From: an uncultured Collinsella sp.
GTDB lineage: Bacteria; Actinomycetota; Coriobacteriia; Coriobacteriales; Coriobacteriaceae
Length of the DNA stretch: 6,212 nt
Reading direction: 5' to 3'
Assembly (NCBI GenBank): GCA_900557505.1
Contig: USTC01000081.1
Span: forward strand, 1 to 6,212
Of the stretch, positions 1,239 to 6,062 are shown piece by piece; the first letter of the stretch is position 1, and each line of letters starts with the position of its first letter. The notes under the pieces were generated by a model. It ran no database searches. It saw only the letters and a list, made by a program, of their open reading frames with translations, and was not told where the DNA came from. A program made the position numbers and the translations under genes.

Positions 1239-1274
1239 GCCGCGGTCCCGTTTGGGATCGCGGCTGTTCTGTTG
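1239..1274 (+). terminator. Possible intrinsic terminator upstream of larA
   Basis: GCCGCGGTCCC (1239-1249) pairs with GGGATCGCGGC (1254-1264) through 11 bp with one G-U wobble and a GTTT loop. The stem is followed by the T-enriched but interrupted TGTTCTGTTG (1265-1274). It could stop read-through from ppc before larA. The broken T-tract keeps confidence moderate. Confidence 0.4.
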
Positions 1275-1373
1275 TGGGTCAAATATGAACGTTATGTTAA
1301 CGACTCGGTGGACGGTGGCGTTTTTCGGTGAGCGGCGTATCCTTCCAACGGTTTATCTAGTGTGTCAGTTGAA

Positions 1374-1383
1374 AGGAAGAGGG
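1374..1383 (+). promoter_or_regulatory. Ribosome binding site that fixes the larA TTG start
   Basis: AGGAAGAGGG lies 9 nt before the TTG at 1393. No ATG or GTG in the larA frame lies near the point where homology to LarA begins, so this purine-rich site decides the start. Confidence 0.65.
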
Positions 1384-1392
1384 CGCTCGTCA

Positions 1393-2670
1393 TTGTTTGA
1401 ATGTGAACTGCCGTTTGACCACAAGACGTTGCATCTGGAGCTCGAGGATAAGAACTTCGCGGGTGTGATGGAGGGTCATCAAAACGAGTTTAAGACCACG
1501 AAATCGCAGGAAGAGCTGGTAGAGGAGTCGCTTGCCAACCCTTATGGCTCGCCTTCGCTCGAGGAGCTTTGTGCTGGCAAAAAGGATATCGTCATCATTA
1601 GCTCCGACCATACGCGCCCCGTTCCCTCGCGTGTGACGATGCCTATTCTGCTGCATCACATCCATTCTGCTGCGCCTGAAGCGCGCGTTCGCATTCTGGT
1701 TGCTACGGGTATGCATCGTCCGTCGACGCACGAGGAGCTCGTCAACAAGTACGGCGAGGAGATCGTTGCCAACGAGGAAATCGTTATGCACGTTGCGACT
1801 GACGACAGCATGATGAAAAAGATCGGCACCCTGCCTTCTGGTGGCGAGTGCATCATCAATAAGATTGCCGTCGATTGCGATCTGCTGCTTGCCGAGGGCT
1901 TTATTGAGCCGCACTTCTTTGCTGGTTTCTCCGGCAGCCGCAAGTCCGTCCTGCCCGGCATCGCCAGCTACAAGACCATCATGTACAACCACAACGGCCA
2001 GTTTGTGAACGATTCTCATTCGCGCGCCGGCAACCTGTGCCACAACCACGTGAGCGAGGACATGTTTGCCGCTGCCGAGATGGCTCACCTTGCCTTTGTG
2101 CTGAACGTGGTGCTCAACGGCAAGCATGAGGTCATCGGCTCCTTCGCCGGTGACATCCACAAGGCACACGAGGCTGGCTGCGAGTTCGTGAAGAGCCTTG
2201 CCGGCGTTGAGCCCGTCGAGTGCGAGATTGCCATCACCACCAACGGCGGCTACCCGCTCGATCAGAACATCTACCAGGCCGTGAAGGGCATGTGCTCTGC
2301 CGAGGCCACGCTTCCCGAGGGCGGTGTGATCATCGACGTCGCCGGTTGTGCCGACGGTCACGGCGGCGAGGGCTTCTATCACAACATCGCCGACAACGAT
2401 CCGGCAGAGTTTGAGCGCGCCTGTATCGACCGTCCTAAGGACGAGACCCTGCCCGACCAGTGGACGAGCCAGATCTTTGCCCGCATCCTGGCGCATCACC
2501 CTGTGATCATGGTCACCGACCTGTGCGATCACCAGATGATCAAGGATATGCACATGACGCCGGTCAACACCCTCGAGGAGGCGCTCAAGCTCGCCTTTGA
2601 GATGAAGGGTGCCGATGCCAAGGTGGCCGTTATTCCCGATGGCCTGGGCGTTGTTGTCGCTCAGCACTAG
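1393..2670 (+). CDS. larA: Lactate racemase LarA (nickel-pincer cofactor enzyme)
   Basis: LarA interconverts D- and L-lactate in the cytoplasm using the nickel pincer nucleotide (NPN) bound to a lysine; hydride is taken from and returned to lactate. From the TTG at 1393 the product is 425 aa, against 424 in L. plantarum. As I recall the L. plantarum numbering, the key residues fall at the same positions: D72 and R75 in SSDHTRPVP, H108 in TGMHRPSTHEE, H174 and the cofactor lysine K184 in the stretch from EPHFFAGFSG to RKSVLPGI, nickel ligand H200, Q295 and K298 in YQAVKG. The conserved tryptophan is at 357, one residue earlier because of a one-residue gap. The frame is open upstream to TTG 1252, but those 47 codons do not resemble LarA and precede the ribosome site. 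It is followed after 49 nt by the channel gene, probably in one transcript. Catalytic conservation is complete, so lactate racemization is more likely than another LarA-homolog substrate. Confidence 0.96.
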   Translation: MFECELPFDHKTLHLELEDKNFAGVMEGHQNEFKTTKSQEELVEESLANPYGSPSLEELCAGKKDIVIISSDHTRPVPSRVTMPILLHHIHSAAPEARVRILVATGMHRPSTHEELVNKYGEEIVANEEIVMHVATDDSMMKKIGTLPSGGECIINKIAVDCDLLLAEGFIEPHFFAGFSGSRKSVLPGIASYKTIMYNHNGQFVNDSHSRAGNLCHNHVSEDMFAAAEMAHLAFVLNVVLNGKHEVIGSFAGDIHKAHEAGCEFVKSLAGVEPVECEIAITTNGGYPLDQNIYQAVKGMCSAEATLPEGGVIIDVAGCADGHGGEGFYHNIADNDPAEFERACIDRPKDETLPDQWTSQIFARILAHHPVIMVTDLCDHQMIKDMHMTPVNTLEEALKLAFEMKGADAKVAVIPDGLGVVVAQH

Positions 2671-2719: not shown

Positions 2720-3451
2720 ATGCTTACCAAACTCCTCTGCGAATTCGGCGCAACGGCCCTCATGATCATCTTTGGCGTGGGCGTGCACTGCGATACCGTG
2801 CTCAAGGGCACCAAGTATCAGGGCTCCGGCCATATGTTTGCCATCACCACTTGGTCTTTTGGCATCTCGGTCTGCCTGTTTGTCTTTGGCGGCGCCGTGT
2901 GCATGAACCCGGCTATGGTGCTTGCCCAGTGCATCGTAGGCCTGGTGCCGTGGAGCAGCTGCATCCCCTTCATGATTGCCGATATGCTCGGCGGCTTTGT
3001 GGGCGCCGTAATCGCTTGGCTTATGTATGCCGATGAGTTCAAGGCTTCCGAGGGCGTCGTCGACCCCATTGCCCAGCGCAACATCTTCTCGACCAACCCC
3101 ACCACCGAGGGTACGAACTATGCCCGTAACTTCTTCTGCGAGGCTATCTGCACCTTTGTGTTCATCAGCGCCATCCTTGCTGCCGCTAGCCGCGCTGGCG
3201 AGAACGTTCTGATGCTTGCCATCTGCGTCGGCCTGATCGTTTGGGCTGTTGGCATGGGCATGGGCGGCATTACCGGCTTCGCCATGAACCAGGCTCGTGA
3301 CCTTGGTCCTCGCATGGCCTATCAGGTGCTGCCGATCAAGAACAAGGCTGACAACAACTGGAAGTACGGCCTGCTTGTTCCTGGCATCGCGCCGTTTGTC
3401 GGTGCCGCTTTGGCCGCGCTGTTTGTGCATGGTTTCTTGGGCATGTTCTAG
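2720..3451 (+). CDS. larD: MIP-family (aquaglyceroporin) channel, LarD-like
   Basis: A 243-aa integral membrane channel of the aquaporin/glycerol facilitator family. In L. plantarum larD in the lar operon encodes a lactic acid channel, and its place 49 nt after larA argues for the same role here, though this is inferred from context. Hydrophobic segments cover about residues 5-23, 40-60, 80-103, 137-156, 163-183 and 217-241, giving the six-helix pattern. The first half-helix motif is CMNPAMV (NPA at 63-65), where most members have HxNPAV. The second is MNQARDLGPR (NQA at 190-192), where NPARDxGPR is usual; the selectivity arginine R193 is kept. ATG 2720 is preceded by the purine-rich GAAAGATAAGG (2705-2715). 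The length is near the usual 230-290 aa. Assignment to the MIP family is firm; the substrate, and the symbol, are less sure because the motifs are unusual. Confidence 0.85.
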   Translation: MLTKLLCEFGATALMIIFGVGVHCDTVLKGTKYQGSGHMFAITTWSFGISVCLFVFGGAVCMNPAMVLAQCIVGLVPWSSCIPFMIADMLGGFVGAVIAWLMYADEFKASEGVVDPIAQRNIFSTNPTTEGTNYARNFFCEAICTFVFISAILAAASRAGENVLMLAICVGLIVWAVGMGMGGITGFAMNQARDLGPRMAYQVLPIKNKADNNWKYGLLVPGIAPFVGAALAALFVHGFLGMF

Positions 3452-3646: not shown

Positions 3647-3764
3647 CTGAATTTGGATGTGGTGGGCACTTTGTTGTTGGGCGCTTTGAGGTGCGAGTGA
3701 CACTTTGGGATGCGTGGTGGCCTGGGGTGGGGCGGTGCCTTGGGATGAGAGGCTTACTTACTTA
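3647..3764 (-). terminator. C-rich, G-poor region after the TetR gene, possible Rho-dependent terminator
   Basis: Read as RNA from the - strand, starting at the tetR stop codon, this 118-nt stretch has 49 C and only 17 G, little capacity to form hairpins, and runs such as CCGCCCCACCCC. A C-over-G bubble just past a stop codon is the signature of a Rho utilisation site. No intrinsic terminator was seen for the larB-larC-tetR transcript before the hairpin repeat at 3608. Confidence 0.4.
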
Positions 3765-4301
3765 GTTGAAGAGGGGCTTTATGGCTGATAGGTAGTCTTT
3801 GGCTACGTCCTCTTTTGGGGCTTGGAAGTTGTGCCAGGCCCACCATTGGACCATTCCTACGAAGCTTGAGGCTATGTGGTGCAGCAAGAAACTGCGGTCC
3901 ATGGTGGCGGCGGGGCCTGCGGGGTCGGCGGGGACGGTTTCGGCTGCTCGTGACATGATGGTCTTGCGTAGGCAGTCGGCGAAGACGCGTGAGCCGGCGC
4001 CGGCTACGAGGGCTCGAACGCCCTGGCGGCGCTCCCAGAGGTTGTTGAGGATATGCTCGACCTGCACGAGCGGGTCGTCGAGTGGCGTGCCATCGTCGTC
4101 GAGGGCGTGGGTGCAGATGTCGCTCACGAGCTCGGACAGTAGGTCATCTTTGCTCTTGAAGAGGCCGTAGAATGTCGCGCGGCCTACGTGAGCGCGCGCG
4201 ATGATGTCGCCGACGGTGATCTTGCCGTAGTCCTTCTCGCGAAGGAGCTCGGAAAACGCATTGACAATAGCGGTGCGGCTTTTGGTTTTGCGGGCATCCA
4301 T
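3762..4301 (-). CDS. TetR/AcrR-family transcriptional regulator
   Basis: A 179-aa DNA-binding regulator. Residues 8-55 form the TetR domain; the helix-turn-helix lies at about 28-47 (ITVGDIIARAHVGRATFYGL), followed by the typical FKSKDDLL. The C-terminal part, ending around HHIASSFVGMVQWWAWHNF (141-159), resembles the ligand and dimer domain of DhaS-like TetR proteins. The ligand cannot be told. The start is ATG 4301, since the residues before it are out-of-frame larC sequence. Only 2 nt separate it from the larC stop (TAG-CC-ATG) and no Shine-Dalgarno is visible, so translation is probably coupled to larC. As last gene of the larBC unit it is the natural candidate to control the lar genes, in place of the CRP-type LarR of L. 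plantarum; this is inference. Its 3' half uses A-ending codons (ATA, CTA, TCA, GTA) more than the neighbours do. Confidence 0.9.
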   Translation of the reverse strand: MDARKTKSRTAIVNAFSELLREKDYGKITVGDIIARAHVGRATFYGLFKSKDDLLSELVSDICTHALDDDGTPLDDPLVQVEHILNNLWERRQGVRALVAGAGSRVFADCLRKTIMSRAAETVPADPAGPAATMDRSFLLHHIASSFVGMVQWWAWHNFQAPKEDVAKDYLSAIKPLFN

Positions 4302-4303
4302 GG

Positions 4304-5227
4304 CTATGCATCCACATGAACAAGCAGGCAACGGAGCGTGCCGGAGCAACCCTCGTAGGGGCGTTTGCCGGCGCCGTAGCCGACGGCTTCGATGCGGTAG
4401 CGTGAGGGCAGTTGGTCGGACGTGCGCAGCGCGGTGACGATGGCGGCGCCCGTGGGCGTCACGAGCTCGCCGGCGACCGGCGCGGGCGTGAGGGCGATAT
4501 TGCCTGCCTGGCACAGGTTGACGACAGCGGGGACGGGAATGGGCATGAGGCCGTGGGCACAGTGGATGGTACCGTGACCCTCGGAGAGCGACTCGACGAC
4601 AATATCCTCGATGCCCAGGTCATCGAGGCAGATGGCGACAGAGCAGATGTCAACGATGGAATCGATGGCGCCTACCTCGTGGAACATGACGGTCTCGGGC
4701 GTTTTACCGTGAGCCTTGGCCTCGGCAGCAGCGAGTACGGAAAAAATGGCGAGCGCGCGACGCTTGGCGCCATCGCTTAGCTGCGAGCCATCGATGATGG
4801 CGGTGACGTCGGCTAGCGAGCGGTGATGATGGTGGTGGGTGTGGTGATGATCCTCGTGCTCATGGGCGTGGCCCTCATGGTCATGTTCGTGGCAGTGCTC
4901 GTGTTCGCCATGATCATGATGGTGGTGCTCATGCTCATGCTCATGCTCATGTGTGTGCCCGGCAACTGCTTCGTTGCCGTAGAGCCAGGCCATGTCGTGG
5001 TCATGGTTCTCGAGCTCCTCTGCCAGCTGAACGTCAAAGTCGCAGGCGTCGATGCCATGCTTGTTTACGCGTGTGACGGCAATCTCAAAGCCGTCGACCG
5101 GCAGCGTGGCGAGCTGCTCGTGCAGATGCTCCTCGCTGGCGCCCAGGTCGAGCAGGGCCGCGACGGTCATATCGCCGCTGATGCCCGAGGTGCCGTCGAT
5201 GATAAGCGTATGCTGATGGTTGGACAT
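4304..5227 (-). CDS. larC: Nickel insertion protein LarC, N-terminal (LarC1-type) domain only, with His-rich insert
   Basis: LarC inserts nickel into the sulfur-bearing pyridinium nucleotide to finish the LarA cofactor; from the literature it is a CTP-dependent cyclometallase. Seen here: GISGDM (15-20), the variant of the family's GASGDM; FHEVGAIDSIVDI (182-194); the GHGTIHCAHG and PIPVPA segment (217-234); GELVTPTGAAI (253-263); GYGAGKRP (283-290). Residues 91-135 are a metal-binding type insert with 26 histidines. The product is 307 aa and stops at the usual end of the LarC1 domain. Full LarC proteins run to about 400 aa with a LarC2 domain; in L. plantarum LarC2 is reached by ribosomal frameshifting. 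No LarC2-like sequence occurs in any - strand frame downstream, which holds the TetR gene instead. The start is ATG 5227 with AAGGAG 6 nt upstream, 10 nt after the larB stop. Family identity is sure; function without LarC2 is open. Confidence 0.9.
   Translation of the reverse strand: MSNHQHTLIIDGTSGISGDMTVAALLDLGASEEHLHEQLATLPVDGFEIAVTRVNKHGIDACDFDVQLAEELENHDHDMAWLYGNEAVAGHTHEHEHEHEHHHHDHGEHEHCHEHDHEGHAHEHEDHHHTHHHHHRSLADVTAIIDGSQLSDGAKRRALAIFSVLAAAEAKAHGKTPETVMFHEVGAIDSIVDICSVAICLDDLGIEDIVVESLSEGHGTIHCAHGLMPIPVPAVVNLCQAGNIALTPAPVAGELVTPTGAAIVTALRTSDQLPSRYRIEAVGYGAGKRPYEGCSGTLRCLLVHVDA
4823..4957 (-). repeat. Histidine-rich low-complexity coding segment, with hexanucleotide tandem repeat
   Basis: This part of larC encodes residues 91-135, which alternate His with Glu and Asp. 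At 4926-4951 the + strand reads TGCTCA four times plus two bases, giving His-Glu pairs. Gain or loss of a unit would stay in frame, so the length of the insert can be expected to vary among strains. Confidence 0.85.
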
Positions 5228-5233
5228 GGAATG

Positions 5234-5239
5234 CTCCTT
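5234..5239 (-). promoter_or_regulatory. larC ribosome binding site, overlapping the larB stop
   Basis: On the - strand TAAGGAG contains both the last two bases of the larB TAA (5238-5240) and the Shine-Dalgarno AAGGAG, 6 nt before the larC ATG. This implies the same transcript and probably coupled translation. Confidence 0.8.
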
Positions 5240-6020
5240 AGCGGGCGCGGGGTGTGCCGGCGCTCAGATGATTGATAAGACTTGCCTGGTATGCGGCACC
5301 AAAGCCGTTGTCGATATTGACGACCGAAACGCCGCTGGCGCAGGAGTTGAGCATGGCGAGCAGTGCGGCTACGCCACCAAAGCTCGCGCCGTAGCCCACG
5401 CTGGTGGGAACGGCAATGACCGGACAGCTCACCAGGCCGCCGATAACGCTCGCCAGCGCGCCTTCCATGCCGGCGATGGCGATGACCACCTGCGCCTGGG
5501 CAAGTTCCTCGGCATGCGCGAGCAAGCGGTGCAGGCCGGCGACGCCTACGTCGTAGAGGCGGTCGACCTCGTTGCCATAGAACTCGGCCGTCAACGCGGC
5601 TTCCTCGGCGACGGGCAAGTCGCTCGTGCCGGCGCAGGCGACGACGATGCGTCCGTTACCGGTGGGGGAGGGCTTGCCGCCCACGAGGGCGAGCTGCGCG
5701 TCCGGGATATATCCCAGGTCGATGCCGTTGTCGAGGAGCTCCGAGATGCGGGCTGCTTTTTCGCTGTCCAGGCGCGTGACCAGGATGCGCTCCTGACCGG
5801 CATCGTGCAGCGCTTCGATAATGGCGGCAATTTGCTCGGCGGTTTTTCCGGCGCCGTAGACAACCTCGCCGGCTCCCTGGCGCACCCCGCGCGAAAGATC
5901 GAGCTGCGCAAAACCCAGATCGGCGGTTGGCGCCGTCTGGAGGCGCGTGAGGGCGACTGCCGGGGTGACTACTCCGTCGGCAACATCGCTCAGCAATTGC
6001 TCAAGATCTCGCTTATCCAT
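5238..6020 (-). CDS. larB: LarB, nicotinic acid adenine dinucleotide carboxylase/hydrolase
   Basis: LarB performs the first step of nickel-pincer cofactor synthesis: it carboxylates the pyridinium ring of nicotinic acid adenine dinucleotide and releases AMP, giving the biscarboxylic mononucleotide for LarE. The 260-aa product has the family's N-terminal RGVRQGAGEVVYGAGKT (44-60), then the PurE-like C-terminal domain: AGTSDLPVAEEAALTAE (130-146), GNEVDRLYDVGVAGLHRLL (149-167), AGMEGALASVIGGLV (183-197), PVIAVPTSVGYGASFGG (200-216) and LNSCASGVSVVNIDNGFGA (224-242). C227 in NSCASG corresponds, from memory, to the cysteine that attacks the pyridinium ring in L. plantarum LarB. The start is ATG 6020, with AAGGGA 6 nt upstream; a GTG at 6053 in the same frame lacks a ribosome site. 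L. plantarum LarB is about 246 aa. It heads the larB-larC-tetR unit. Confidence 0.95.
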   Translation of the reverse strand: MDKRDLEQLLSDVADGVVTPAVALTRLQTAPTADLGFAQLDLSRGVRQGAGEVVYGAGKTAEQIAAIIEALHDAGQERILVTRLDSEKAARISELLDNGIDLGYIPDAQLALVGGKPSPTGNGRIVVACAGTSDLPVAEEAALTAEFYGNEVDRLYDVGVAGLHRLLAHAEELAQAQVVIAIAGMEGALASVIGGLVSCPVIAVPTSVGYGASFGGVAALLAMLNSCASGVSVVNIDNGFGAAYQASLINHLSAGTPRAR

Positions 6021-6026
6021 ATATGT

Positions 6027-6032
6027 TCCCTT
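6027..6032 (-). promoter_or_regulatory. larB ribosome binding site
   Basis: On the - strand AAGGGA stands 6 nt before ATG 6020 and selects this start over the in-frame GTG at 6053. Confidence 0.7.
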
Positions 6033-6062
6033 CGACGGTGCAAAGTCTAGCACGAGAAAGGG

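What the first reader, a model, noticed from the sequence alone, without database searches (positions are those of the whole stretch)
4304..5227. LarC without its LarC2 domain
The larC frame stops at TAG 4304 right after the LarC1 domain (GYGAGKRP...TLRCLL). In known LarC proteins about 130 more residues follow, and in L. plantarum LarC2 is fused by ribosomal frameshifting. I translated the other two - strand frames past the stop: one is the TetR gene, the other soon hits a stop, and neither resembles LarC2. From the literature LarC2 binds CTP, which nickel insertion needs. Either LarC2 is encoded elsewhere, a stand-alone LarC1 works here, or the locus is decayed. All catalytic residues of LarA and LarB are intact, which argues against decay.
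Basis: partly seen in the sequence, partly recalled or inferred. Interest (0 to 1): 0.75.

Follow-up and report, generated by a model that had tools for sequence, protein, structure and literature searches.

The report
Nickel-insertion enzyme split into distant genes
In this stretch, whose nearest matches are all the gut bacterium Collinsella, the gene for the enzyme that puts nickel into the lactate-racemase cofactor encodes only the first half (LarC1); relatives carry the second half (LarC2) as a separate, distant gene that family trees trace to a different copy, so the working enzyme is likely put together from two halves of different origin.

Summary
In detail: larC at 4304-5227 (-) encodes an intact LarC1 and no LarC2, in any frame. 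It is neither an error nor decay: 21 of 21 loci examined end at the same place, two bases before tetR, under purifying selection. The missing half is not lost. Of 43 Collinsella genomes, 20 carry a lone LarC1 gene plus a lone LarC2 gene elsewhere (615-647 kb apart in the three with both on one contig), at the site where 17 others keep larB-larC. Trees give the halves different ancestry: LarC1 groups with an unsplit lar cassette of other Coriobacteriia, LarC2 with resident Collinsella larC. C. bouchesdurhonensis holds the intermediate. Best reading: a second lar cassette was gained, then cassette and resident gene lost opposite domains; the nickel insertase is likely assembled in trans. Not tested: binding, activity, and the window's own genome (not held). 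Against a simple story, 12 other genomes of the order and one Lachnospiraceae genome checked have LarC1-type proteins without detectable LarC2; two of these 13 have LarA.

The parts
4304..5227 (-). larC1: complete LarC1 domain (307 aa) without LarC2
4817..5008 (-). His-rich loop of LarC1 (64 residues, 28 His) between the N-terminal part and the core
   Evidence: a His-rich stretch of varying length is also present in the full-length LarC relatives measured
4299..4306 (-). junction TAG-CC-ATG: larC1 stop, two bases, tetR start; in the unsplit relatives L020 and L156 the LarC2 coding stretch lies between LarC1 and tetR
3762..4301 (-). tetR-family regulator, directly downstream of larC1
5238..6053 (-). 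larB (271 aa), upstream of larC1
   Evidence: (NF033503, 290.7 bits, cut-off 175)
1252..2670 (+). larA, nickel-dependent lactate racemase (ORF from a TTG; similarity to solved LarA begins at residue 51, so the true start may lie downstream)
   Evidence: (NF033504, 600.9 bits, cut-off 460)
2720..3451 (+). larD, lactic acid transporter of the MIP family
   Evidence: NF043012, 421 bits, cut-off 390

Best explanation
The window's larC encodes LarC1 only, and its LarC2 partner is likely supplied in trans by a separate gene elsewhere in the same genome, which in relatives is apparently the trimmed remnant of an older resident larB-larC locus, so that the nickel insertase is predicted to be a two-part hybrid of different ancestry. 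Inferred history: an ancestor of C. bouchesdurhonensis and the C. aerofaciens group had a resident larB-larC (full length) and gained a second cassette, larA-larD / tetR-larC-larB. The cassette larC lost its LarC2 part, the resident locus lost larB, and in the C. aerofaciens group the resident larC then lost LarC1, leaving LarC2 alone. Inferred work: LarB and LarE make the pincer nucleotide precursor, LarC1 (with its His-rich loop) and the separate LarC2 (the CTP-binding half, recalled) associate and insert nickel, and LarA uses the finished cofactor to interconvert L- and D-lactate, which LarD carries. Shown here: gene structure, distribution, synteny, phylogeny, selection. Not shown: presence of LarC2 in the window's own genome, binding of the two halves, activity.
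For: (1) 20 of 43 Collinsella genomes have a lone LarC1 (model 1-235) and a lone LarC2 (237/238-375) that together cover the family model; 615-647 kb apart in G028, G029, G041 (same contig), on different contigs in the other 17. All 20 also have LarB, LarE and LarA over cut-off. All 34 genomes with LarA over cut-off have a LarC2, lone or fused. (2) Synteny: in 21 of 21 lone-LarC2 loci the yfcE-like and mazG genes follow and the PHP-domain gene lies on the other side (about 4.5 kb off in two, L083 and L125); 17 of 17 full-length-only genomes have larB-larC at a locus with yfcE, in some with shuffled order (names). (3) Intermediate: C. bouchesdurhonensis (G006) has the cassette with lone LarC1 and a full LarC without larB at the his/PHP locus. 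(4) Unsplit cassette in two related genomes: L020 (larB-larC full-tetR) and L156 (larA-larD / tetR-larC full-larB, same order and orientation as the window). (5) Trees: cassette LarC1 with L020 100/99; one clade with resident LarC1 rejected, p 1.7e-6 and 2.2e-5 on a changed row set. Lone LarC2 with resident LarC2 100/98 and 98/98; one clade with L020 rejected, p 0.032, with L020+L156 p 0.017. HisF+HisA tree: split loci one clade 100/97, with C. bouchesdurhonensis 99/96. (6) The stretch before lone LarC2 resembles the resident linker; the AlphaFold model of unsplit L020 LarC has low confidence at 280-294 between two better-predicted parts, so the split falls in a likely flexible linker. (7) Lone LarC2 matches solved LarC2 6bwo (7.3e-29) and NCBIfam LarC2 (152 bits, cut-off 50); median dN/dS 0.06.
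Against: The window's own genome is not held, so its LarC2 is inferred from relatives. No co-expression, binding or activity data. Support is uneven: the LarC2 tests are moderate (p 0.032, 0.017) and a LarB tree with cassette and resident as one clade is not rejected (p 0.099). One of 25 columns at least 90% conserved in other LarC2 (G71) is A in 3 of 8 lone LarC2, and 1 of 19 invariant columns differs in L073. LarC1-type proteins without detectable LarC2 exist in 13 of 13 other genomes checked for it (12 of the order, and G018, Lachnospiraceae, whose LarC1 contig ends about 420 bases further on); two of the 13 (G134, G018) have LarA. So LarC1 without LarC2 may do something. In one search two of 43 genomes break the pairing (G048 LarC1 only, G050 LarC2 only); their cassette contigs are cut at assembly ends, but that this explains them is an interpretation.
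Confidence: 0.82

Rival explanations
1. LarC1 works alone here, and the distant LarC2 is not part of nickel insertion (it has another role or is a leftover).
For: LarC1-only or core-only LarC1 proteins, most of them read next to larB, occur in genomes without any LarC2 match, two with LarA (G134, G018). LarC2 sits in a different run of genes with yfcE and mazG.
Against: LarC2 is kept in 20 of 21 genomes with a lone LarC1 and no full LarC and under strong purifying selection; 11 of the 12 LarC2-free genomes of the order that were checked lack LarA. In print, nickel insertion by L. plantarum LarC is CTP-dependent and Moorella LarC cytidinylylates the substrate (PMC11796402, passages); that CTP binds the LarC2 part is recalled, from no call.
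Confidence: 0.1
2. The larC gene is decayed: LarC2 was lost and nickel insertion no longer works at this locus.
For: LarC2 is absent from the gene where unsplit relatives have it.
Against: Same end point in 21 of 21 loci, 36 of 36 invariant residues kept, median dN/dS about 0.1 for LarC1 and LarB, larA, larB and larD over their cut-offs.
Confidence: 0.04
3. The stop is an assembly error, or a programmed frameshift joins a LarC2 frame, as in L. plantarum.
For: An overlapping LarC1/LarC2 pair of frames is seen in L033 (Phascolarctobacterium).
Against: No LarC2 signal in any frame of the window; tetR starts two bases after the stop; the same arrangement in 21 of 21 loci.
Confidence: 0.01
4. LarC1 and LarC2 in the split genomes come from one ancestral larC of the genus that was cut in two and moved apart, not from two lineages.
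For: A LarB tree with cassette and resident LarB as one clade is not rejected (p 0.099).
Against: LarC1 one-clade test rejected (p 1.7e-6 and 2.2e-5), LarC2 test rejected (p 0.032 and 0.017); C. bouchesdurhonensis carries both copies at once; L156 has the unsplit cassette in the window's gene order.
Confidence: 0.06

Closest known systems
L. plantarum LarC1/LarC2, joined by programmed frameshift (recalled; solved LarC2 6bwo/6bwq/6bwr, its organism recalled)
   Same: LarC1 and LarC2 as separate frames covering the same two domains
   Different: There the frames are adjacent and joined by frameshifting; here LarC2 is far away, in another gene neighbourhood, so no such joining is possible
Anaerobutyricum larC1 (EHLA_1342) and larC2 (EHLA_1341) (PMC7702098, one passage)
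   Same: Separately annotated larC1 and larC2, lar genes scattered in the genome
   Different: Neighbouring locus numbers; the passage says nothing of two different larC lineages
Full-length LarC, e.g. Moorella thermoacetica (PMC11796402 passages); solved chain 12bi that spans both halves
   Same: Same LarC1 and LarC2 domains by sequence
   Different: One polypeptide
Unsplit lar cassette of Coriobacteriia G059 (L156) and L020
   Same: Gene order and orientation larA-larD / tetR-larC-larB in L156; larB-larC-tetR in L020
   Different: larC keeps LarC2 between LarC1 and tetR

Membership tests
LarC nickel insertase (PF01969) | LarC1 part of the model | tested here: met
   positions 1-234 of 375, 271.5 bits; TIGR00299 193.4 bits, cut-off 90
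LarC nickel insertase (PF01969) | LarC2 part in the same polypeptide | tested here: not met
   no LarC2 in six frames of the window
LarC nickel insertase (PF01969) | LarC2 somewhere in the same genome | tested here: inconclusive
   own genome not held; 20 of 21 Collinsella genomes with lone LarC1 and no full LarC have it
LarC nickel insertase (PF01969) | Invariant residues of the family | tested here: met
   36 of 36 in LarC1 of the window; 18 of 19 in lone LarC2 L073 (invariant in 12 full-length rows)
LarC nickel insertase (PF01969) | CTP-dependent nickel insertion | not testable with these tools
   needs assay
L. plantarum-type frameshifted LarC | overlapping or adjacent LarC2 frame | tested here: not met
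   tetR follows after 2 bases; no LarC2 signal
Lactate racemase locus (larA, larB, larD) | LarA, LarB and LarD over curated cut-offs | tested here: met
   600.9, 290.7 and 421 bits
Lone LarC2 (NF052512) in relatives | LarC2 equivalog domain over cut-off | tested here: met
   L073, 152 bits, cut-off 50

The most novel reading that the evidence does not exclude
An obligate hybrid enzyme born by reciprocal domain loss: an incoming LarC1 and a resident LarC2, from larC lineages whose halves are only about 41-54% (LarC1) and 42-43% (LarC2) identical, were each trimmed to one complementary domain and now function only together, from genes some 600 kb apart, with a living intermediate in C. bouchesdurhonensis.
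Probability: 0.68. Interest if true: 0.68.

Novelty: new variant of a known kind. Interest (0 to 1): 0.58.

Why it matters
It says where the nickel-insertion half went in a common human gut genus, and warns that a larC without LarC2 in a lar operon need not mean a broken pathway. It gives a natural LarC1 + LarC2 pair with which the separate duties of the two halves can be assayed, and an example, with an intermediate still living, of gene fission by opposite domain loss in two copies. The LarC1-type proteins without LarC2 in other Coriobacteriales make the need for LarC2 itself a testable question.

Tried and rejected
Frameshift or read-through to LarC2: rejected. Sequencing error: rejected, 21 of 21 loci alike. 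Decay: rejected. Search of the window's own genome failed because none is held. Searches for print: LarC / lactate racemase / LarC2, nickel-pincer + LarC + CTP, LarC + frameshift + lactate racemase, Collinsella + lactate racemase, LarC1 / LarC2 / nickel, Collinsella + larA + nickel, gene fission terms. Of these I saw listings with titles and abstract starts, and passages of PMC11796402, PMC7702098 and PMC11770544 (no mention of Collinsella). What I saw holds no account of LarC splitting in Collinsella; two key LarC papers (PMC6093250, PMC8962377) are not held and were not seen. A trace of resident larB in C. bouchesdurhonensis: the only second LarB piece found (L133, 81% to the window LarB) looks cassette-like rather than resident and was not followed. 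The structure model was not used for a fold search, since sequence hits already reach solved LarC chains.

Full report
What the window holds. On the - strand larB (5238-6053), larC (4304-5227) and a tetR-family gene (3762-4301) follow each other closely; on the + strand larA (1252-2670) and larD (2720-3451) converge on them. LarA, LarB and LarD are over NCBI's curated cut-offs, and LarA and LarB match solved LarA and LarB over most of their length. The larC product covers only the LarC1 part of PF01969 (1-234 of 375) and ends two bases before tetR. No LarC2 is encoded in any frame. The nearest relatives are all Collinsella (20 loci at 84-93%); the window's own genome is not held.

The stop is real. 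The window and the 20 further Collinsella cassette loci examined end alike and have TAG or TAA, CC, ATG before tetR (21 of 21). The LarC1 core has a median dN/dS of 0.103 over 203 of 210 pairs and LarB 0.114 over 208 of 210 (pairs with dS up to 0.05 or not computable were left out). All 36 residues invariant in the LarC1 part of 12 full-length LarC proteins are kept.

Where LarC2 is. In 43 Collinsella genomes: 20 have a lone LarC1 and a lone LarC2; one (G006, C. bouchesdurhonensis) has a lone LarC1 and a full LarC; 17 have full LarC only (3 of them in pieces: G046, G051, G055); one has LarC1 only (G048), one LarC2 only (G050), three have none. In the three split genomes with both genes on one contig they lie 615-647 kb apart; in the other 17 they are on different contigs. 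The cassette contigs of both odd genomes end within the cassette (L131, L134), so these are probably incomplete. All 20 split genomes have LarB, LarE and LarA over cut-off. All 34 LarA-positive genomes have LarC2, lone or fused; 5 genomes have full LarC without LarA over cut-off.

The lone LarC2 gene looks like a remnant in place. In 21 of 21 lone-LarC2 loci (20 split genomes and G050) the gene is followed by a yfcE-like phosphodiesterase and a mazG gene, with a PHP-domain gene on the other side (about 4.5 kb off in L083 and L125). hisE lies beyond in 20 of 21 (L130 ends before it), enolase in 20 of 21 (not matched in L079) (names). In the 17 full-length-only genomes larB-larC lies at a locus with yfcE, some with shuffled order. 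C. bouchesdurhonensis keeps a full LarC there but no larB (L085). The lone LarC2 begins with a stretch like the resident linker (LSRETDAPETIVKLE against LSAETQAPNCIVKLE). An AlphaFold model of the unsplit L020 LarC (12 sequences, mean pLDDT 82, pTM 0.61) has pLDDT under 50 at 73-105 (the His-rich loop) and at 280-294, between the two halves, which is where the split falls.

The two halves have different ancestry. Cassette LarC1 (9 of 21 rows used) groups with L020 at 100/99; forcing it together with the 15 resident LarC1 rows is rejected (p 1.7e-6). Lone LarC2 (8 of 21 rows used) groups with the 15 resident LarC2 rows at 100/98; forcing it with L020 is rejected at p 0.032. With long-branch rows dropped (L035, L037, L039 for LarC1; L035, L039, L078 for LarC2) and L156 added the results hold: 100/99 and p 2.2e-5 for LarC1, 98/98 and p 0.017 for LarC2. 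LarB agrees in grouping (cassette with L020 and L156, 97/98), but joining cassette and resident LarB is not rejected (p 0.099). The three genomes with LarC in pieces were left out of the trees.

Unsplit cassette and order of events. L156 (G059) carries larA-larD / tetR-larC-larB in the window's order with a full larC; L020 has larB-larC-tetR with a full larC. In both, LarC2 lies between LarC1 and tetR, where the window has two bases. A HisF+HisA tree of 28 loci (20 split, C. bouchesdurhonensis, and the 7 of 14 whole resident loci whose fetched stretch holds both genes) makes the 20 split loci one clade (100/97) with C. bouchesdurhonensis next (99/96). Inferred order: gain of the cassette, loss of its LarC2 and of resident larB before C. 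bouchesdurhonensis branched off, then loss of resident LarC1 in the C. aerofaciens group. Whether the cassette came by transfer or is an ancient second copy is open.

Function. The lone LarC2 matches solved LarC2 6bwo (L. plantarum by recall) and NCBI's LarC2 model, keeps 24 of 25 conserved columns in all 8 rows looked at (the 25th is changed in 3 of 8), and has a median dN/dS of 0.06 over 208 of 210 pairs. In print, L. plantarum LarC inserts nickel in a CTP-dependent step and Moorella LarC cytidinylylates the substrate (PMC11796402, passages). That LarC2 is the CTP-binding half is recalled. Working together in trans is inference.

What speaks against a simple story. In 120 genomes of the order of G013, drawn from a larger group, 24 have only a short LarC1 core (model start 39-68, end 204-232) and two (G093, G101) a lone LarC1, without LarC2; cut or broken cases such as G124 and G103 are not counted. 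Ten of the 24 and both of the two were searched with a LarC2 profile at E up to 10: none of these 12 has LarC2, and 11 of 12 lack LarA (G134 has it). G018 (Lachnospiraceae) also has LarC1 and LarA and no LarC2 found, but its contig ends about 420 bases past LarC1. Of six short-core contexts read, five have larB beside the core gene, and L170 also larE. So LarC1-type proteins without LarC2 exist, mostly where LarA is absent. Split LarC genes also occur elsewhere: G201 and G025 on separate contigs, G259 adjacent, L033 overlapping. NCBI already names lone LarC2 proteins (Anaerolineae; model NF052512). Splitting as such is therefore known; the distant, mixed-origin pair is the new variant.

Noticed in passing
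L170:5704-6159, L171:5642-6076, L172:5775-6263, L173:5510-6076, L176:5922-6404, L177:1369-1926 and others: 24 of 120 genomes of the order have only a short LarC1-core protein (188 and 185 aa in L173 and L177), in five of six contexts read beside larB and in one beside larE, with no LarC2; 9 of the 10 searched also lack LarA. Possibly a LarC2-free, LarA-free pincer-nucleotide pathway of unknown use.
   Followed up: partly
L168:6100-6999, L169:6194-7102 (G093, G101): larB followed by a lone LarC1 (299 and 302 aa) with no LarC2 and no LarA detected in the genome: another LarC1-only case.
   Followed up: partly
L174/L175 (G201), L078 and L069 (G025), G259, G273, G263: In the family of G025 (Negativibacillus) LarC1 and LarC2 are split on separate contigs in G201 and G025 (in G025 LarC2 sits in a longer frame), adjacent in G259; G273 and G263 have a full LarC plus an extra LarC1. 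Splitting looks recurrent.
   Followed up: partly
P0151: A LarC2-only protein that matches the end of C. bouchesdurhonensis LarC (L085) by eye, starting at an internal Met, in a cluster of 9 member sequences: LarC1 of the resident gene may be breaking down in some strains, or contigs are cut.
   Followed up: no
P0015: One metagenome protein reads larC1 and tetR as one frame (471 aa).
   Followed up: no
L133:9178-9474: C. bouchesdurhonensis has a second, partial LarB (residues 169-270, 81% to the window LarB) on another contig than both larC genes.
   Followed up: no
window 4817-5008: His-rich loop of LarC1, 28 His in 64 residues; 49-65 residues in the 17 of 21 cassette loci where it was measured.
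   Followed up: partly
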